This document shows, one piece after another, positions 4,621-15,690 of a stretch of DNA of 40,456 bases (the first letter of the stretch is position 1; the number at the start of each line of letters is the position of its first letter). The translations under genes and the position numbers were made by a program. The stretch spans positions 1 through 40,456 of the forward strand of contig JAQTVW010000004.1 of the NCBI GenBank assembly GCA_028706655.1. The letters are read 5' to 3'. This stretch comes from Dehalococcoidales bacterium (GTDB lineage Bacteria > Chloroflexota > Dehalococcoidia > Dehalococcoidales > RBG-16-60-22). The notes beneath the pieces were generated by a model, which saw only the letters and a program-made list of their open reading frames with translations, did no database searches and had not been told where the DNA came from.

Positions 4621-4842
4621 TTAAGCCGGATTCTTGCGTTTTTCGCTGCCGAACCACTCTTTGCTATACCAGTACCGTTCACCGGAACGCAGGTACTTAA
4701 GTCTCTCCTCGCGGCTGTCCAGTTTCTGGCGCCATTGCCCGGCTTGTTCGCCCTGTGGCTCGCCGGATTCATACGTAGCGCCGAGCACTTCTACCTTGTC
4801 ACGGTTCGGGGCACTTTTCTGTTCGATTTTGTATTCCGCCAT
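4621..4842 (-). CDS. Small uncharacterised highly charged protein in the Wood-Ljungdahl operon
   Basis: MAEYKIEQKSAPNRDKVEVLGATYESGEPQGEQAGQWRQKLDSREERLKYLRSGERYWYSKEWFGSEKRKNPA. RBS GGAGG upstream of ATG 4842; stop abuts the acsD RBS; co-directional in a tight operon. Confidence 0.75.
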   Translation of the reverse strand: MAEYKIEQKSAPNRDKVEVLGATYESGEPQGEQAGQWRQKLDSREERLKYLRSGERYWYSKEWFGSEKRKNPA

Positions 4843-4865: not shown

Positions 4866-5741
4866 TTACCTTAAACCAGCCGCCAAAATTGCTGCTTTTA
4901 TTGTGTTGGACATCAGCATCGTAACGGTCATGGGACCGATGCCGCCGGGAACAGGAGTAATCGCTTCCGCTTTCCGGGCTATCGCGGGGAAGTCAAGGTC
5001 GCCGACGAGTATTTCTTTTTCCTGACCCGGCTGTTTGATATAGTTTGCGCCAAAATCTATCGCAATAACGCCTTCTTTTACCATTTCGGCGGTAATAAAG
5101 TTCGGTTTGTTGACCGCTACTATTATTATATCAGCTTGTTTTGTGTAATGCGAAAGTCCCGGATTATCCGGGGGCACCAGTGTCACCGTAGCGCCTGTCT
5201 TTTCCTGCGCCCAGAGAGAAGCCAGCGGCTTGCCCACCAGGTTGTCTATGTTGACGATGACGGCATGCTTACCTTTCAGGCTATACCGGTAACGGCGCAG
5301 GATTTCATCGATGCCGGCGGGAGTGGCAGGCAGAAATGCTTCTTGCCCCAGCCATGCCTTGCCCACGTTGGCGGGATTGAAGCCATCCACGTCTTTCCGG
5401 GGCAGCACCGCGTTGAGCACCCGGTTTTCATCGACATGGGTGGGGAGGGGAAGCTGGACGAAGATACCGTGTATCGCGGGGTCGGCATTCAGCTTCGTAA
5501 TCTCGGAGAGCAGCGCCGCTTCGCTGATTTCAACGGGCAAACGGAGCATGTTGGACTTGATACCCAGCGCCTCGGCGGCTTTCTCCTTGAGCTTGACATA
5601 ACTCGCTGAGCCGGGATTTTCTCCCACGAGCACCCCAGCGATGCCCGGAGTTATGCCGCGTTCCCTCAGGGCGATAACCTGCTGCGCCAGTTCCGCTTTG
5701 ATATCTGCGGAGGTCTTCTTGCCGTCAAGGATGACCGCCAT
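4866..5741 (-). CDS. folD: FolD paralog 1 (methylene-THF dehydrogenase/cyclohydrolase family), cyclohydrolase Lys retained
   Basis: FolD motifs SYVKLKEKAAEALGI, VQLPLPTH, KDVDGFNP, ITPVPGGIGPMT. The nucleotide loop is atypical (VNIDNLVGKP). Confidence 0.93.
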   Translation of the reverse strand: MAVILDGKKTSADIKAELAQQVIALRERGITPGIAGVLVGENPGSASYVKLKEKAAEALGIKSNMLRLPVEISEAALLSEITKLNADPAIHGIFVQLPLPTHVDENRVLNAVLPRKDVDGFNPANVGKAWLGQEAFLPATPAGIDEILRRYRYSLKGKHAVIVNIDNLVGKPLASLWAQEKTGATVTLVPPDNPGLSHYTKQADIIIVAVNKPNFITAEMVKEGVIAIDFGANYIKQPGQEKEILVGDLDFPAIARKAEAITPVPGGIGPMTVTMLMSNTIKAAILAAGLR

Positions 5742-5742
5742 G

Positions 5743-6597
5743 TTATTTGCTTAACCTCTCCGCGGCCTGTACTGTATGCGCCAGCAGGATGGTGGTCGTG
5801 ACCGCGCCCACGCCGCCCGGAACCGGAGTAATCATGCCGGCAACCTGGCTGACCTCATCGAAGTCCATGTCTCCGCTGAGCTTGCCGTCCGCGCCGCGGC
5901 TGACGCCGACATCAATCACGACTGCTCCGGGACTGACGACATCCTTCTTAATCATTTTCGGCTTGCCGACAGCGCTGACCAGGATTTCGGCGCGGCGGAA
6001 CTCCTCCGCAGGATTCTGGGTCTTATAATCGCAAAGAACGACCGTTGCCCAGCGATTGAGCAGCATAATGCCGGCGGTGCGCCCGATGTTGCCTGCCCCG
6101 CCGATGATGACCACGCGCTTACCTTCAATCGGGACATTGTAGCGGTCGAGCAGTTCAATAACCGCCGAAGGAGTGCAGGGCGCGAAGCCATCGGTCTCGC
6201 GCATCATCAACTTCGCCATGCTCAGGGGATTCAGACAATCGACATCTTTTTCCGTCGCCAGTAGTCTGAGGACGGTATTCTCATTTATATGCTTGGGCAG
6301 CGGGCGCTGGATGATGACACCCTGAAAGCGGGTGTCTTTGTTGAGGGCTTCAACCTGCTGCTCCAGCTTTTGCTGGGTAACATCAATCGGGAAATTGAAG
6401 GTCTCGGTATAGATGCCGAGTGCTTCACATGCTTTGGCAATCCCTTTCAGGTAGGACTGCGCGCCGGCGTCTTCCCCGACGGCAATCGCCGCCAGTCCGG
6501 TGTTGATGCCCTTTGCCTTGAGCGCGGCAATGCGGGGCTGTAACTCGGCGCGGATCTTTTCCGCTACGTCTTTACCACTGATTAACTGTGCAGTCAT
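5743..6597 (-). CDS. FolD paralog 2, likely methylene-THF dehydrogenase
   Basis: FolD motifs IIQRPLPKHINENTV, KDVDCLNP, PCTPSAVIELL, ITPVPGGVGAVTTT. Has SYLKGIAKAC (catalytic Lys position is Ile) and a Rossmann-like GGAGNIGR. Confidence 0.92.
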   Translation of the reverse strand: MTAQLISGKDVAEKIRAELQPRIAALKAKGINTGLAAIAVGEDAGAQSYLKGIAKACEALGIYTETFNFPIDVTQQKLEQQVEALNKDTRFQGVIIQRPLPKHINENTVLRLLATEKDVDCLNPLSMAKLMMRETDGFAPCTPSAVIELLDRYNVPIEGKRVVIIGGAGNIGRTAGIMLLNRWATVVLCDYKTQNPAEEFRRAEILVSAVGKPKMIKKDVVSPGAVVIDVGVSRGADGKLSGDMDFDEVSQVAGMITPVPGGVGAVTTTILLAHTVQAAERLSK

Positions 6598-6614: not shown

Positions 6615-7379
6615 CTATTTATTTTTTAGTAATGAGTTCATCAAGGTATCTATCGCGCTCACCGCCGGCGAGTTGTCCGGCAAGTCGACAAGCGGCTTCA
6701 TCCCGAGGTCATATTCATATATCATCTTGTCCTGGGGGACGACAGCAGTTGGCTTGATGTCCAATCGCACCAATTCCGCTTCCACCTGCGGGTCGATGCT
6801 GCCCGCGGGAACCTGGTTGACCAGTACCGACTGGCGTTTGACATTCAAACGGAGTTCTTTAATCATATCGCGCACGCGGGCGATGGTGCGTACCCCTTTT
6901 ACCGAGTGATTGGAGACAAGGAGCATCTCATCGATATTTTGCGTGGTGCGGCGGCTGAGGTGTTCCATGCCCGCTTCGTTATCGATAACGACGAAGGCAT
7001 AGTTGCCGGAAAGTTGGTCGATGAACTTGCGCAGCATGAGGTTGGGGTAGCAATAGCACTCCGCACCCTCGCCCTTGCCCATGCTGAGCAGGTCCAGTCC
7101 TTTGGCTTCGACAATCGCTTCGTTCAATTTGAAGTCGAGATAGTGTTCCTTGGTCATCCCCTGCGGAATCTGGATCTTTTCTTTCTGGAATTCATCGAGG
7201 ATAAGCCCTACGGTCTTGCCGACGGCAATGCCCAGGCTCTCCCCGAGGTTGGCGTTGGGGTCGGCGTCTACAGCCAGGATGGGCGTGAGTCCTTTTTTCA
7301 GAAGGTAGCGGATGACCAGGGTAGTCAACGAGGTCTTCCCGCTGCCGCCTTTGCCCGCCACTGCAATACTTATCGTCAA
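6615..7379 (-). CDS. CooC/AcsF-type P-loop ATPase for CODH/ACS nickel maturation (copy 2)
   Basis: (M)TISIAVAGKGGSGKTSLTTLV..., VDADPNANLGESLG, CxC motif ECYCYPN. TTG start at 7379 directly after the acsV stop, RBS AAAGGA. The track start at 7517 overlaps acsV and is unlikely. Confidence 0.88.
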   Translation of the reverse strand: MTISIAVAGKGGSGKTSLTTLVIRYLLKKGLTPILAVDADPNANLGESLGIAVGKTVGLILDEFQKEKIQIPQGMTKEHYLDFKLNEAIVEAKGLDLLSMGKGEGAECYCYPNLMLRKFIDQLSGNYAFVVIDNEAGMEHLSRRTTQNIDEMLLVSNHSVKGVRTIARVRDMIKELRLNVKRQSVLVNQVPAGSIDPQVEAELVRLDIKPTAVVPQDKMIYEYDLGMKPLVDLPDNSPAVSAIDTLMNSLLKNK

Positions 7380-7380
7380 A

Positions 7381-9348
7381 TTATTTCCTTTTTCCGGTAT
7401 TCTTCTGCCGCTCGCTGAGTTTCCTTGTGACTTCAGGGAACACGTCAGCGTGGGTATGCGGCAGGAACATAGCGGCAGTATAGCTGTCCATGAAGTCGGC
7501 GCTGTCGCTGAGTTCAATGTTGGTCATCATGGCGGCGATGCGCCGCGAATCATCGAGCAGGTCGGTGGAGAAGGAGACCAGCCGTGCACCCAGCAAGGAG
7601 CCGTTGCCGACGAAGATAAAGCGGTCTTCGGGAAGCTCCGGCAGCAGTCCGATGGTGATGGCGCTTTTTATGTTCAGGTGGCTGCCGAAAGCGCCGGCGA
7701 TAATAACCTGGTCGAACGCGGCGCAACTGGTGCCGACGCTCTTGCTCAGGGTCTGGCAGCCGGCATACATCGCGGCTTTGGCGCGGATGAGGTTTTCAAT
7801 GTCAATCTCGGTCAGTACGATATCCCTGCCGATTTGTGTATCCGGCGCCCATGCCATGACGTACTCGTAGCCGTCTTCGCCGGTGCGGATACGTTTGGTG
7901 GGCAGGTTGTGCTGAAACTTGCCGTTCCGGGTAATGACACCGGCTTCCATCATGCGGGCGATGGTGTTAATCAGTCCCGAGCCGCAGATTCCCTTGGGTT
8001 TGGACTTGCCGATGACCCCGATTTTCGGCTCGTAGGTTTTTTCATCGATATCAAAATCTTCAATGGCGCCATCGGTGGCGACGATGCCGTGACGGATACC
8101 GCCGCCTTCAAACGCGGGTCCCGCCGAGCAGGACGCTGTCACCAGCCAATCCGAATTACCAATGACGATTTCGCCGTTGGTGCCGATATCCAGGAAGAAG
8201 GTCAGCTTGTTGCGCTGGTACATCCCCGTGCCGATGACGCCGGAAACAATGTCCCCGCCGACGTAGCTGGAAACAGCCGGGAAGACGAAGATGAGCGCAC
8301 CTTTTCTCAGATGGATACCCAGCGAACGCACCTCGACCGGGGGAAAAAAATTGGCGGCGGGAATGTAAGGCGCTAATCGGATATACTGCGGGTCGACGCC
8401 GAGCAGCAACTCTGTCATGGTGGTGTTGCCTGCCAGGGTCATGTGCCCGATGTCCTTCAGGTTGACCTGGCTCTTCGCCAGCAGATTGTCAATTACCTTG
8501 TTAATCGTATCAATAACGGCAGTTTGCAGCTTCTTGAGTCCGCCGGGCTTCTGCGCCTGCGCAATTCTTGTGATGACGTCCTGTCCGTACGGTATCTGCC
8601 CGTTAAACTCGATGCTGTCCGCGAGAATTTTACCTTTATTCAAATCGAGAAGCTGTCCGCAGACCGTAGTTGTGCCGATATCGAAAGCGAGGGCATAATG
8701 TCTTTCGCGGGTGTCGCCCGGCTCAACATTCACGATACGGAGGCGGCGCCCGTCATCCTTCCTGCCCTCGCGCACCGCGGTCGTCAGCAGCGTGACCGTG
8801 ACCCTCCAGTTTTTCCGGCGCACAATCCCGGGTAAAGTTTTCAGGATGTCAAAGTCCACGCCCACGTTCTTCAGTTTGTACTGCTGTTTGAGACCGCGCA
8901 GCAGGCGGGAAAGGTCGCTGGCGTTATCGGTCATGGTGGGAGGCGGTAACTCAAGGTAGAACTTGCTGAGCGGCGGTTTAAAGCGCCAGCCGGTGGCGAG
9001 CGCCGCCGAGACGTTCTTGCCTTCCCGGGCAACGATGGCACGCTCCAGACGCGATTCGACCGGCACATAGACTGTCAGGTCGGTAAGGACCCGGGTCTGG
9101 CACGCCTGGCGGACGCCGCGCCCGTATTCTTCATCCGAAATTCTGGTGGTGCGGGTCGTCTCGGCATCGCCCTTTTCAATCACGACCTTACAGGTACCGC
9201 AGGTGCCGCTGCCGCCGCAGGAGGCATGAAGACGCACCCCGGCGGCAATCGCAGCCTGCAGCAGATTTTCGCCCTTCGCCACGACAATATCGACATTATC
9301 GGGATTGAAATGGACGGTTACTTTTTTATGAGCTAAATCTTTCGCCAC
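7381..9348 (-). CDS. acsV: Reductive activator of corrinoid proteins (RACo/AcsV): N-terminal [2Fe-2S] domain plus ASKHA-like C-terminal domain
   Basis: Ferredoxin motif CGGSGTCGTCK...C; DIGTTTV, FLDIGTNGEIVIG and AGAFGSHLNI motifs; position in the operon. Confidence 0.93.
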   Translation of the reverse strand: MAKDLAHKKVTVHFNPDNVDIVVAKGENLLQAAIAAGVRLHASCGGSGTCGTCKVVIEKGDAETTRTTRISDEEYGRGVRQACQTRVLTDLTVYVPVESRLERAIVAREGKNVSAALATGWRFKPPLSKFYLELPPPTMTDNASDLSRLLRGLKQQYKLKNVGVDFDILKTLPGIVRRKNWRVTVTLLTTAVREGRKDDGRRLRIVNVEPGDTRERHYALAFDIGTTTVCGQLLDLNKGKILADSIEFNGQIPYGQDVITRIAQAQKPGGLKKLQTAVIDTINKVIDNLLAKSQVNLKDIGHMTLAGNTTMTELLLGVDPQYIRLAPYIPAANFFPPVEVRSLGIHLRKGALIFVFPAVSSYVGGDIVSGVIGTGMYQRNKLTFFLDIGTNGEIVIGNSDWLVTASCSAGPAFEGGGIRHGIVATDGAIEDFDIDEKTYEPKIGVIGKSKPKGICGSGLINTIARMMEAGVITRNGKFQHNLPTKRIRTGEDGYEYVMAWAPDTQIGRDIVLTEIDIENLIRAKAAMYAGCQTLSKSVGTSCAAFDQVIIAGAFGSHLNIKSAITIGLLPELPEDRFIFVGNGSLLGARLVSFSTDLLDDSRRIAAMMTNIELSDSADFMDSYTAAMFLPHTHADVFPEVTRKLSERQKNTGKRK

Positions 9349-9366: not shown

Positions 9367-11139
9367 CTAGTCTACCTCGTGAAGCCCCTTGACCTTGCCG
9401 GTCTTGACATCGACATCGACCTTGCGGAAGGCAGGGTCGGAACCGGTGCCCGGCATCAGGCTGATCGTGCCCGCCATCGGGCAGAGGAACTTGGCGCCGG
9501 AATAAATCAGGATATCGCGGATGGGCAATACCCAGCCTTTGGGGACACCCTTGAGCGTCGGGTCATGGGTCAGGCTGAGGTGGGTCTTGACCATCATCGT
9601 GGAATATTCGTTGTATTTCGGGTCTGCTTCAAAAGCCTTGGCTTTCGCCTCGGCTTCGGGGCTCCAGGCGACGCCGTCCGCGCCGTAGACCACTTTAGCA
9701 ACCTGTTCGACGCGTTGGCGCAGTTTCGTCTCGTTGGGATAGAGGAAATGGAAATCGTTCTTTTCGTTGCAGGCTTCCTTGACGGCATCCGCCAGTTCCA
9801 GGGCGCCGGCGCCGCCGTTGGCGAAGTGGGTGGAAACAGCGCAGCGCGCTCCCGCCGCCTCGGCAGCCTTGCGCACGATAGCCACTTCTTCTTTGGTATC
9901 GGTTGGGAAGCTGTTGATGCAAACCACCGGGTTGATGCCTGCCGTGCGGATGGTCTTGATGTGGTGCAGCATATTGGCGCAGCCTTTTTCCACCAGTTCC
10001 GGGGCGGATTTCTTGTACGCATCGGGCAGCGGGACGCCGGGAGTCACTTTGGGACCGCCGCCGTGCATTTTAAGCGACCGGATGGAAGCGACCAGCACCG
10101 AGACGTTCGGCTTGAGACCGCTGTTGCGGCACTTGACGTTCCAGAACTTTTCGAAACCGATATCGGCGGCGAAACCGCTTTCGGTGACATGATAATCAAA
10201 CATCTTCAGCCCGAGGCGGTCGGCGATAATAGACGATTGCCCCACGGCGATATTGGCGAAGGGGCCGGCATGCACCATGCAGGGCTGGTATTCCGCCGTG
10301 CAGCAGAGCGTGGGGTTAATCGTGTTGCGCATCCATGCGGTCATCGCCCCGGCTACTTCAAGGTCGCCGGTAGTTACGGGCTTGCCCTTCTTATCAAAGG
10401 CTACTGTAATGTTATTCATTCTCTCGCGCAGGTCGGCAAGGTCGCGGACGATGGACAGCATCGCCATCAGTTCCGAGCTTACCGCGATGCCGAATTTGGA
10501 CTGCATCGTGAAACCGTCCATGCGTCCGCCGAGTCCGATGATGATATTGCGCAGGCTCTGGGCGCAAAAGTCGATGACCCAGCCCATCTCGACGCGGGTA
10601 GGGTCGATATTAAGGCGGCGGATGCCGCTCAGCCGGGCGAGTTGCTCGTCATCATAGTTGCGCTCGTGCTGCATGCGGGCTTGCAGGGCGACCATCGCCA
10701 GGTTGTGCGCATTCATAATATCGTTGATATCGCCGGTCAAGCCCATGGAAAATTCGGTATGGGGAATCAAAATGGCATTGCCGCCGCCGGCAGCAGTACC
10801 CTTGACGTTCATGGTAGGACCGCCGGAGGGCTGCCGGATGCATCCGCCGACGTTCAGCTTCTGCTTACCCAATCCCTCGATGAGCCCCATCGTGGTAGTG
10901 GTCTTGCCCTCGCCCAGCGGAGTGGGGGTGACAGCGGTAACTTCAATATACTTGCCGTCCGGCTTGTTGCCCAGGCGGTTCATTATCTTGAGAAAGTCGA
11001 GCCTGGGCGTTTTGCCGAAGGGGATAATTTCGTCCTTTTGCAGGTTGAGCCGCGCCCGCCATTCTTCCGGATTCGGCATGTGCTCTTCGGCAGCTTCGGC
11101 AATCTGCCAGTCCGCCATCTTGGTGATATCGTAAGCCAT
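9367..11139 (-). CDS. fhs: Formate-tetrahydrofolate ligase
   Basis: [58 protein letters not shown]-like [12 protein letters not shown] and C-terminal MPGTGSDPA motifs. Confidence 0.97.
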
Positions 11140-11210: not shown

Positions 11211-11987
11211 CTAGTGTGTTGCCTTTGCCGGAAGAAGCTTGCGAAAGATATTATCGATTTCTGCGGCGACCTGACCACTGGCTTCGAAGATGGGATGTCC
11301 CGCCAGGTCGGCATCGATAATCGCCTGGTCGTAAGGGATAAAGCCGAGGAAATCAGAGCCGGGCAGACTGGATGTGATAAAGTCCTTTTCGGCAGGGGTC
11401 TTGACCTTGTTGCCGACGACCGAGATGCTGGGCAGACCCAGGTCCTGCGCCAGCTGGTAAATAGTGCGAGCAGTCTCGATGCTGCGGTGCCCCGGTTCCA
11501 CAACTACAATAAGTTTATCGACGGCTTTGGAAGTGCCCCGTGCCAGGTGTTCGATGCCGGCTTCCATGTCCAGGATAACCACTTCATCACGCTGCAGCAG
11601 GAGATGGGAGAGCAATGCCTGGAGCAGGACGCCTTCAGGGCAATAGCAGCCGGTGCCGCCCCGCTTGATGCGTCCCATCACCATGAGCTTGATGCCGTCC
11701 AGCTTTGCGGAATAGCGTTCGGGCAGGTCATCCACGCGGGGGTTCAGCTTAAAGAACGAGCCGGACTGTCCGGGCTTGGCGCCGGTACGTTCTTCGATGA
11801 TTTCATTCAATTCGGATATGGGGGTAATCTTTTCCGGATGGGCAAAACCGAGGGTCGCCGCCAGATTAGCATCAGGGTCGGCATCGATGGCTATGACTGA
11901 AAATCCTGACGCAGCGAAGCGCCGGGCAAGTGATGCCGCCAGCAGCGTTTTGCCGACGCCGCCTTTTCCGCTAATAGCTAGTTTCAT
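11211..11987 (-). CDS. cooC: CooC-type P-loop ATPase (copy 1)
   Basis: MKLAISGKGGVGKTLLAASLARRFA..., IDADPDANLAATLG, CxC motif GCYCPEG, VILDMEAGIEHLARGT. Internal ATG at 11987 preferred over the track start at 12083. Confidence 0.9.
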   Translation of the reverse strand: MKLAISGKGGVGKTLLAASLARRFAASGFSVIAIDADPDANLAATLGFAHPEKITPISELNEIIEERTGAKPGQSGSFFKLNPRVDDLPERYSAKLDGIKLMVMGRIKRGGTGCYCPEGVLLQALLSHLLLQRDEVVILDMEAGIEHLARGTSKAVDKLIVVVEPGHRSIETARTIYQLAQDLGLPSISVVGNKVKTPAEKDFITSSLPGSDFLGFIPYDQAIIDADLAGHPIFEASGQVAAEIDNIFRKLLPAKATH

Positions 11988-12122
11988 CCGTATCTTAATT
12001 AACCTTTGGATTTCTAGCGAAATCGATAGTTCGCCGGAGAGGTAATGTGAAGAACGAGCGTTTAAAAAACAACTGCGCTTCACAGCCTGTGTCTCTATCT
12101 AGCCTGCGATGGAATGAGTATA

Positions 12123-14192: not shown

Positions 14193-14241
14193 TGCCGCGC
14201 CTTGCATTCTGCATAAAATCTGGGTTAGAATTGAACATAAA

Positions 14242-14328
14242 CCGCTAGGGGTGCTCAGGGCTGAGAGTCCCGGGTAACCGGGACAACCCTTGGAACCTGC
14301 TCTCGGTAGTGCGAGCGTAGGGAAGCGG
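14242..14328 (+). promoter_or_regulatory. TPP (thiamine pyrophosphate) riboswitch aptamer (THI element)
   Basis: ccgctAGGGGTGCtcagggCTGAGAgtcccgggtaaccgggacAACCCTTGGAACCTGctctcggtagtgcgagCGTAGGGAAgcgg matches the conserved TPP core; P1 pairing ccgct/agcgg; directly upstream of thiC. Confidence 0.96.
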
Positions 14329-14394
14329 CAGTGAGACCAGGGGTCTACTGCTTAATGCCGCAGCCCTTGGTTTTATTATTTTAGGGAGACTGCA

Positions 14395-15690
14395 ATGACA
14401 CAGTTAGAATCGGCGAGAAAGAGTATTATTACCCCGGAAATAGCGGCGGTCGCACATGCCGAGCAGGTGGAACCTGAATTTATCCGGCAGGGTATCGCGC
14501 AGGGTAACATCGTTATTCCGGCGAATATCAAGCATACCAACCTCGCGCCGCGCGGCATCGGTAAAGGACTTTCGACAAAGGTTAATGCCAATATCGGCAC
14601 GTCGTCCGATTTTTGTGATAAGTCTGTCGAACTGGAGAAACTGCGGGTGGCGATTGCCGCGGGAGCGGATGCGGTCATGGACCTGAGCACCGGCGGAGAT
14701 ATCCCCGCAATGCGCCGGGCGGTCATTGACGCCAGCCCGATTCCGGTGGGCACGGTGCCCATCTACCAGGCGGGCATCGGAGCGATAAACAAATATGGCG
14801 CTATTGTCAAAATGACGGTGGATGATCTCTTTGCCGGCATCGAAGCGCACGTCCGCGACGGCGTCGATTTTATTACGGTTCACTGTGGCGTGACCCGCTC
14901 GGCGATTGCGCGGCTTAAGCAGCAGGGCAGGGTGGCGGATGTCGTCTCACGCGGCGGCGCCTTCCTCATCGGCTGGATTCTCCACAATGAGCAGGAAAAC
15001 CCGCTTTATGAGTATTACGACCGCTTGCTGGAACTGGCGCGGGAATATGATGTGACTCTGAGCCTCGGTGACGGCATGCGCCCGGGCTGTTTGTCCGACG
15101 CCACCGACCGCGCCCAGATTGAAGAACTGATTACCCTCGGCGAACTGGTGGAGCGCGCCTGGAAAGCCGGCGTGCAGGTCATGGTGGAAGGTCCGGGGCA
15201 TGTGCCGCTGAACCAGATTGAAGCGAATGTCCAACTGCAAAAATCGCTGTGCAAGGGTGCGCCCTTCTATGTGTTAGGCCCGCTGGTCACTGACATCGGC
15301 GCCGGCTACGACCACATTACCGGGGCTATCGGCGGGGCGATTGCTGCGGCGGCAGGCACCGATTTCCTGTGCTACGTGACGCCTGCGGAACACCTCGGTC
15401 TCCCCGATGCGGAAGATGTGCGCCAGGGTGTGATTGCCTCGCGTATTGCGGGGCATGCGGCGGATATTGTCAAAGGCGTAAAAGGCGCTGCCGACCGTGA
15501 TTTGCAGATGTCGCTGGCGCGCAAACGGCTTGACTGGCAGGCGCAGGCGCAGCTCTCCATCGACCCGGAGCGGGCGAAAGAAATTCATGCCAGGCGTGCC
15601 ACCGCCGGGGAAGCCTGTTCCATGTGCGGCGCCTTCTGTGCTATGAAAGTCGTCGAGCAGTATCTCGGCGTACGCACTTCAAGATGCTAG
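14395..15690 (+). CDS. thiC: Phosphomethylpyrimidine synthase ThiC
   Basis: [70 protein letters not shown] and C-terminal [13 protein letters not shown] cluster motif. Confidence 0.97.

What the first reader, a model, noticed from the sequence alone, without database searches (positions are those of the whole stretch)
4866..6597. Tandem FolD paralogs with reciprocal active-site loss: a possible split of dehydrogenase and cyclohydrolase
Seen: two adjacent FolD-family genes in the Wood-Ljungdahl operon. Paralog 1 (4866-5741) has Y-x3-K (SYVKLKEK), aligning the Lys with E. coli FolD Lys54. Its dinucleotide loop is eroded: VNIDNLVGKP where E. coli has IGASNIVGRP, and AVNKP where E. coli has AVGKP. 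Paralog 2 (5743-6597) has Ile at the Lys position (SYLKGIAKAC), but a clear GxGxxG (GGAGNIG) and an acidic residue after beta-2 (VVLCDYKT), a pattern usually linked to NAD. Established: this Lys is required for cyclohydrolase activity in bifunctional FolD/DHFD enzymes. Inference: paralog 1 is a cyclohydrolase and paralog 2 a (probably NAD-linked) dehydrogenase, which would change the cofactor budget of the methyl branch.
Basis: partly seen in the sequence, partly recalled or inferred. Interest (0 to 1): 0.76.

Follow-up and report, generated by a model that had tools for sequence, protein, structure and literature searches.

The report
Split FolD pair in Dehalococcoidia
Some anaerobic Dehalococcoidia bacteria carry two neighbouring copies of a normally two-job folate enzyme, and each copy has kept the residues for a different job, which looks like a two-function enzyme that has split into two specialists.

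Summary
Two FolD-family genes lie head to tail, 1 nt apart, on the minus strand of a Wood-Ljungdahl operon. Paralog 2 (upstream, "A") has Ile where E. coli FolD has Lys54. Paralog 1 (downstream, "B") keeps Tyr50, Lys54, Gln98 and Asp121 but has lost NADP-site residues.

The pattern is not a one-off. I found 22 such pairs in 21 Dehalococcoidia genomes: A is Ile54 in 22/22 and B is Lys54 in 22/22. A and B are sister clades from one duplication. Both are under purifying selection. No pair genome has FchA. In 20 of 21 genomes the pair is the only FolD (one keeps a canonical third copy).

Elsewhere in the phylum, 14/14 sampled FolDs lacking Lys54 sit next to fchA, a dedicated cyclohydrolase; 0/12 with Lys54 do. 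B therefore occupies the place of FchA. Best reading: A is a dehydrogenase and B a FolD-derived, NADP-independent cyclohydrolase.

NAD use is supported by sequence only for the window's A subtype (3 of 22 pairs). No activity has been measured, and K54 mutants disagree between E. coli and silkworm. I found no earlier report of a cyclohydrolase-only FolD in the open-access library searched.

The parts
5743..6597 (-). folD-A (paralog 2), 284 aa, predicted monofunctional 5,10-methylene-THF dehydrogenase
   Evidence: PF00763+PF02882; Ile at E. coli K54; AF2 pLDDT 93.4, FolD fold, 3p2o TM 0.97
6439..6441 (-). Codon of Ile53 in folD-A, the position of E. coli FolD Lys54
   Evidence: alignment; Ile in 22/22 A proteins
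6091..6102 (-). folD-A dinucleotide loop G166-G167-A168-G169 (canonical G-R/A-S-N); the Arg and Ser of the NADP site are lost
   Evidence: shared only with G052 and L057/G458
6028..6030 (-). Asp190 of folD-A after beta-2, in place of the His that helps bind the 2'-phosphate: NAD-type signature
   Evidence: role of human His196 from PMC3368264
4866..5741 (-). folD-B (paralog 1), 291 aa, predicted monofunctional methenyl-THF cyclohydrolase of FolD fold
   Evidence: PF00763+PF02882; AF2 pLDDT 93.5, FolD fold, 3p2o TM 0.93/0.96
5586..5588 (-). Codon of Lys52 in folD-B, the position of E. coli FolD Lys54, retained
   Evidence: Lys in 22/22 B proteins
5244..5252 (-). folD-B lost dinucleotide loop N164-I165-D166 (canonical G-[RA]-S)
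   Evidence: S->D in 19/19, R/A->V/I in 19/19, G->N in 19/19 of the main set; one further B has S-A-D
5109..5111 (-). Asn211 of folD-B replacing the invariant Gly of A-V-G-K-P
   Evidence: N or D in 19/19 B; Gly in A and in single-copy FolDs
9367..11139 (-). fhs, formate--THF ligase: the step before the FolD reactions, same operon
   Evidence: NF010032 above cut-off
6615..7517 (-). cooC-like nickel-insertion ATPase directly upstream of folD-A (true start probably inside this frame)
   Evidence: PF01656
4621..4842 (-). conserved 73-aa ORF of unknown function between folD-B and acsD; present with or without the folD duplication
   Evidence: no Pfam or NCBIfam hit

Best explanation
The two genes are the products of one tandem duplication of a bifunctional FolD inside Dehalococcoidia, followed by complementary loss of function. 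folD-A (paralog 2) keeps a dinucleotide site but has Ile instead of the catalytic Lys54, so it interconverts methylene-THF and methenyl-THF only. folD-B (paralog 1) keeps the folate/cyclohydrolase site (Tyr50, Lys54, Gln98, Asp121) but has lost the residues that hold NADP (G166, R/A167, S168, residue 191, G211, V230), so it interconverts methenyl-THF and 10-formyl-THF only. Together they replace the single bifunctional enzyme of their relatives, in the same operon position where the pathway is Wood-Ljungdahl. The window's A subtype probably uses NAD; the more common subtype probably still uses NADP. Shown: sequences, conservation, phylogeny, co-occurrence, absence of alternatives. Inferred: the enzymatic activities and cofactor.
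For: A: K54->Ile in 22/22; B: Lys54 in 22/22. B: S168->Asp, residue 191->Pro, G211->Asn/Asp and V230->Phe, each in 19/19, with Lys54, Gln98 and Asp121 kept. Human Arg173, His196 and Ser197 bind the NADP 2'-phosphate (PMC3368264); B has Val/Ile for the Arg and Pro for the Ser. Single-copy FolDs of relatives have neither loss, 25/25. Tree: B 100, A 93, A+B sisters 91, within the Dehalococcoidia FolDs 98. Each partner signature led to the other: all 18 B-signature loci in FolD genes, from a scan of 84,980 species, lie in Chloroflexota contigs, and all are preceded by A except L067, whose contig stretch starts inside B and whose genome (G461/G116) has A in place. All 10 A-signature genomes in 393 of the class have B directly after A. 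No other FolD in 20/21 pair genomes and no FchA in 21/21. Positive control: 14/14 Lys54-less FolDs elsewhere have fchA within about 0.2 kb, 0/12 Lys54 FolDs do. E. coli K54N: no detectable cyclohydrolase, ~19% dehydrogenase (PMC5688156). dN/dS well below 1 for both. A and B distances correlate, r = 0.75 without the window subtype, 0/2000 permutations as high.
Against: No enzyme has been assayed. Silkworm K53A kept near-normal cyclohydrolase activity in vitro (PMC6443876), so loss of the Lys need not abolish it everywhere. Methenyl-THF hydrolysis can occur spontaneously (stated in PMC5688156), so a cell could lack an enzymatic cyclohydrolase. G147 carries a third, canonical FolD as well as a pair, so the pair does not always replace it. 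A-clade monophyly rests on moderate support (77/97 and 93), because the window's A subtype sits on a branch about one change per site long. dS is saturated for most pairs.
Confidence: 0.8

Rival explanations
1. A and B work as an obligate heterodimer (FolD enzymes are dimers through the cofactor domain): a bifunctional complex in which B supplies the cyclohydrolase site and A the dehydrogenase site, possibly with transfer of methenyl-THF between them. (This refines the best explanation rather than excluding it.)
For: Tandem order A then B with gaps of -4 to 150 nt in the pairs measured; correlated divergence; both retain the whole FolD fold. The dimer interface lies in the cofactor domain (PMC3368264), which B keeps although its cofactor site is lost.
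Against: Not tested: only single chains could be modelled. Tandem order is equally expected from duplication and operon membership.
Confidence: 0.3
2. B is catalytically dead or regulatory, and the cyclohydrolase step is left to A or to spontaneous hydrolysis.
For: Silkworm K53A retains cyclohydrolase activity (PMC6443876); the reaction can be spontaneous (PMC5688156).
Against: B keeps the folate-site residues almost perfectly (K54, Q98, D121 and F123 in all members of the main set in which they could be read), which drift does not explain. Lys54-less FolDs elsewhere always have a neighbouring cyclohydrolase gene. Reductive flux in the Wood-Ljungdahl pathway needs the reverse, condensing direction.
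Confidence: 0.08
3. A remains bifunctional because another basic residue (Arg/Lys at positions 52 or 56) takes over from Lys54, and B is a spare.
For: A proteins have Arg or Lys at positions 52 and mostly at 56.
Against: Position 56 is also basic in the canonical enzymes. The same Y-x-[KR]-x-I-x-[KR] motif recurs in several fchA-linked FolDs of other Chloroflexota (e.g. RYVRQIGR, RYVKQIAR, WYVRSIRR), whose cyclohydrolase is evidently supplied by FchA. Some A proteins also lose Q98 (to Phe or Leu), another residue needed for cyclohydrolase in E. coli (Q98H ~1%, PMC5688156).
Confidence: 0.07
4. Ordinary divergence of two redundant bifunctional FolDs, with the motif differences of little consequence.
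For: NCBIfam best hits for both are bifunctional FolD models, though below their cut-offs; automatic annotation would probably call both bifunctional.
Against: The same changes are fixed in 22 pairs in reciprocal fashion and absent from 25 single-copy relatives.
Confidence: 0.04

Closest known systems
Bifunctional FolD / MTHFD (E. coli FolD, human MTHFD1 DC domain, MTHFD2)
   Same: Same fold (TM about 0.9 or more to solved FolDs), same two Pfam domains, same folate-site motif in B, same cofactor domain in A.
   Different: Each protein has lost the residues of one of the two activities: A lacks Lys54, B lacks the NADP loop.
FchA-linked monofunctional FolD + FchA pair (many acetogens and other Chloroflexota, here G475, G469, G008 and others)
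   Same: A FolD without Lys54 next to a separate cyclohydrolase gene; the same logic of two single-activity enzymes in one operon.
   Different: Here the partner is not FchA (PF04961; none in 21 pair genomes) but a second FolD paralog.
Yeast MTD1 (monofunctional NAD-dependent methylene-THF dehydrogenase, 1EDZ)
   Same: Dehydrogenase-only, NAD-linked FolD-family enzyme: what A of the window is predicted to be.
   Different: Only distantly related to A (phmmer 3.7e-6 against 5.5e-67 for C. jejuni FolD); no FolD-type cyclohydrolase partner of this kind is known for MTD1 (own knowledge).
Human MTHFD1L (inactive DC domain with active synthetase)
   Same: A FolD-family domain that has lost activity after duplication (PMC11064299).
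   Different: There the FolD part lost its activities altogether; B appears to have kept cyclohydrolase.

Membership tests
FolD family (fold and domains) | PF00763 + PF02882 over the full length, FolD fold | tested here: met
   both proteins
Bifunctional FolD (both activities in one chain) | Catalytic Lys of Y-x3-K (E. coli K54) | tested here: not met
   A: Ile in 22/22; B meets it (Lys in 22/22)
Bifunctional FolD (both activities in one chain) | Cofactor loop G-[RA]-S-x-x-V-G-x-P, Ser/Thr (Arg in E. coli) after the beta-2 His, and G211 | tested here: not met
   B: N-[VI]-D, Pro and Asn/Asp in 19/19 of the main set; the common A subtype meets it
Bifunctional FolD (both activities in one chain) | Both enzymatic activities measured on one protein | not testable with these tools
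   needs purified enzyme
FchA methenyl-THF cyclohydrolase | FTCD_C domain (PF04961) | tested here: not met
   B matches FolD domains only; PF04961 absent from 21/21 pair genomes
FchA methenyl-THF cyclohydrolase (works like) | Gene adjacent to a FolD that lacks Lys54 | tested here: met
   22/22 B genes directly downstream of a Lys54-less A
Monofunctional NAD-dependent methylene-THF dehydrogenase | Loss of catalytic Lys | tested here: met
   A
Monofunctional NAD-dependent methylene-THF dehydrogenase | NAD specificity | tested here: inconclusive
   window subtype: Arg/Ser lost and His->Asp after beta-2; other A proteins keep Arg-Ser and His; no assay
Monofunctional NAD-dependent methylene-THF dehydrogenase | Dehydrogenase activity | not testable with these tools
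   needs purified enzyme

The most novel reading that the evidence does not exclude
B founds a new class of methenyl-THF cyclohydrolase: a FolD that discarded its dinucleotide site, paired with its sister dehydrogenase in a heteromeric complex, so that a bifunctional enzyme was naturally split into two genes while the two sites stay together. The window's lineage then switched the dehydrogenase to NAD.
Probability: 0.25. Interest if true: 0.75.

Novelty: new variant of a known kind. Interest (0 to 1): 0.62.

Why it matters
FolD is a textbook bifunctional enzyme whose two activities share one folate site; separate enzymes for the two steps are otherwise known as an unrelated pair (FolD + FchA). 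Here one duplication seems to have produced both specialists from the same fold, giving a clean natural experiment on which residues serve which activity and whether the two can be uncoupled. Practically, both genes are likely to be annotated 'bifunctional FolD', and metabolic models of Chloroflexota C1 metabolism (e.g. PMC5736913) assign one bifunctional, NADPH-linked FolD; in pair genomes that would be wrong in enzyme count and, in the window's lineage, probably in cofactor.

Tried and rejected
Plus-strand reading of the coordinates: only fragments with stops. Chance or sequencing artefact: rejected by 22 loci in 21 genomes. Pseudogene: rejected, full frames and dN/dS well below 1. Third FolD or FchA hidden in the genome: none in the window's genome (94.6% complete); G147 is the one pair genome with a third, canonical FolD, split over two contig ends. 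Horizontal origin of A or B from outside the class: not supported by the tree. B as an NAD enzyme: no acidic residue after beta-2 in B and the loop glycines are lost. Alternative Lys in A: see rivals. Universal NAD use by A: rejected, only the window subtype has the signature. The B pattern misses variants (V-S-A-D, V-N-V-D-S and V-N-M-D-S in G147, G437 and G386), so 21 genomes is a lower bound. The eight pattern hits outside Chloroflexota showed no FolD similarity at the locus and are chance. Literature searches for a cyclohydrolase-only FolD found none; subscription papers were not searchable, and one mutagenesis paper sought by DOI was not held.

Full report
WHAT IS THERE. The two genes are real, complete and on the minus strand. 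In transcription order the operon reads cooC, fhs, acsV/RACo-like activator, cooC, folD-A (paralog 2, 5743-6597), folD-B (paralog 1, 4866-5741), a 73-aa ORF, acsD, cooS, acsB. A and B are separated by one base. Both carry PF00763 and PF02882, are 36% identical to each other, and model as FolD with high confidence (pLDDT 93.4 and 93.5; best PDB matches are FolD/MTHFD structures). The window's genome (94.6% complete) has no other FolD and no FchA.

THE RECIPROCAL LOSS. Aligned to E. coli FolD, A has Ile at Lys54, whereas B keeps Tyr50, Lys54, Gln98 and Asp121. B has N-I-D where the canonical loop has G-R/A-S, and Asn at G211. In the human enzyme thirteen residues form the NADP site, and Arg173, His196 and Ser197 hold its 2'-phosphate (PMC3368264). 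In E. coli, K54N has no detectable cyclohydrolase and about 19% dehydrogenase activity, and Q98H has about 8% dehydrogenase and about 1% cyclohydrolase (PMC5688156). A contrary datum: silkworm K53A kept cyclohydrolase activity (PMC6443876).

IT IS A CONSERVED SYSTEM. A scan of 84,980 species with a DNA pattern for B's lost loop gave 26 hits. The 18 that lie in FolD genes are all in Chloroflexota contigs, mostly labelled Dehalococcoidia, each with an A-type gene directly upstream, apart from L067, whose stretch begins inside B; the same genome (G461, identical place in G116) has A in place. The reverse test, a pattern for A's C-terminal motif over 393 genomes of the class, found 10 genomes. All have B directly after A, three of them with slightly different B loops. 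In all I count 22 pairs in 21 genomes (G168 has two). A is Ile54 in 22/22, B is Lys54 in 22/22. In the 19 pairs of the main set, B has S168->D, residue 191->P, G211->N/D and V230->F in 19/19, while A has F123->T/L, H124->N/S and M266->V. Twenty-five single-copy FolDs of relatives, two of them read in the same operon slot (G008, G016), show neither loss.

ORIGIN. With other Chloroflexota FolDs as outgroups, B is one clade (SH-aLRT 100), A one clade (93), A+B sisters (91), inside the Dehalococcoidia FolDs (98) (an earlier tree without the phylum outgroups agrees, with weaker A support 77/97). One tandem duplication followed by complementary loss is the simplest history. Distances within A and within B correlate (r 0.39 overall, 21/2000 permutations as high; r 0.75, 0/2000, without the fast window subtype). 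Both genes are under purifying selection (dS mostly saturated, so only the direction is meaningful).

A NATURAL CONTROL. In other Chloroflexota I found FolDs with Ile or Leu at Lys54. All 14 (12 in the phylum sample, plus G008 and G016) have fchA within about 0.2 kb; none of 12 Lys54-bearing FolDs does (Fisher p about 1e-7, but these genomes are related, so the number overstates independence). Five of the 12 have PF04961 only in 525-548 aa frames elsewhere, and G473 in a 289-aa frame on another contig. None of the 21 pair genomes has FchA. So a Lys54-less FolD comes with a partner: FchA elsewhere, folD-B here. This is the strongest indirect evidence that B is the cyclohydrolase.

COMPLETENESS OF REPLACEMENT. 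In 20 of 21 genomes the pair(s) are the only FolDs. G147 (99% complete) has in addition a canonical FolD (Lys54, GRSNIVG) split over two contig ends.

COFACTOR. Two A subtypes exist. In the window, G052 and L057/G458 the loop is GGAGN/GGAGK and the His after beta-2 is Asp, the usual NAD-type arrangement. The other 19 keep GRSNIVGKP and CHT, as in the single-copy enzymes. The NAD inference and the 'cofactor budget' argument therefore apply to the window's lineage only, and are inference. A deep-sea Chloroflexi study assumed a single bifunctional, NADPH-linked FolD (PMC5736913).

CONTEXT. Pairs also occur outside the CODH/ACS operon: next to fhs (L046, L054, L058, L062, L066), in a MetF-MetV-RnfC-like cluster (L069), and beside a corrinoid protein (L048). 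All are C1/methyl-branch settings. MTHFR (PF02219) is present in 17 of 19 genome handles searched.

WHAT IS NOT SHOWN. No activity, cofactor or oligomeric state was measured; tools gave single-chain models without coordinates, so the cofactor pocket was judged by alignment. No prior report of a cyclohydrolase-only FolD was found in the open-access library.

Noticed in passing
window 4621-4842 (-): A 73-aa ORF without Pfam or NCBIfam match lies directly before acsD; it is conserved (53-75% identity) in this position in other Dehalococcoidia CODH/ACS operons with or without the folD duplication, so it may be an unrecognised component.
   Followed up: partly
G168 (UBA3088; L054, L058): This genome carries two different folD-A/folD-B pairs, each beside an fhs gene: a second round of duplication or transfer of the whole pair.
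   Followed up: partly
G147 (L139, L140): Third, canonical FolD in a pair genome, with C-D-T after beta-2, next to a second fhs-like gene; the gene is split over two contig ends.
   Followed up: partly
L104-L107, L110, L112, L113, L116, L117, L121, L122, L124; L040, L042: FolDs of several Chloroflexota lineages have lost Lys54 (to Ile or Leu) and sit next to fchA: a clade that automatic annotation may call bifunctional.
   Followed up: yes
G001: The only same-genus relative held (95% complete) has no FolD and no FchA at the thresholds used.
   Followed up: partly
window 14237-14340 (+): TPP riboswitch (Rfam RF00059) just upstream of the 14395-15690 ORF, which looks like thiC.
   Followed up: no
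window 6615-7517 and 11211-12083 (-): Two distinct CooC-like ATPases in one CODH/ACS operon (cross-identities around 30%), both conserved in other Dehalococcoidia operons.
   Followed up: no
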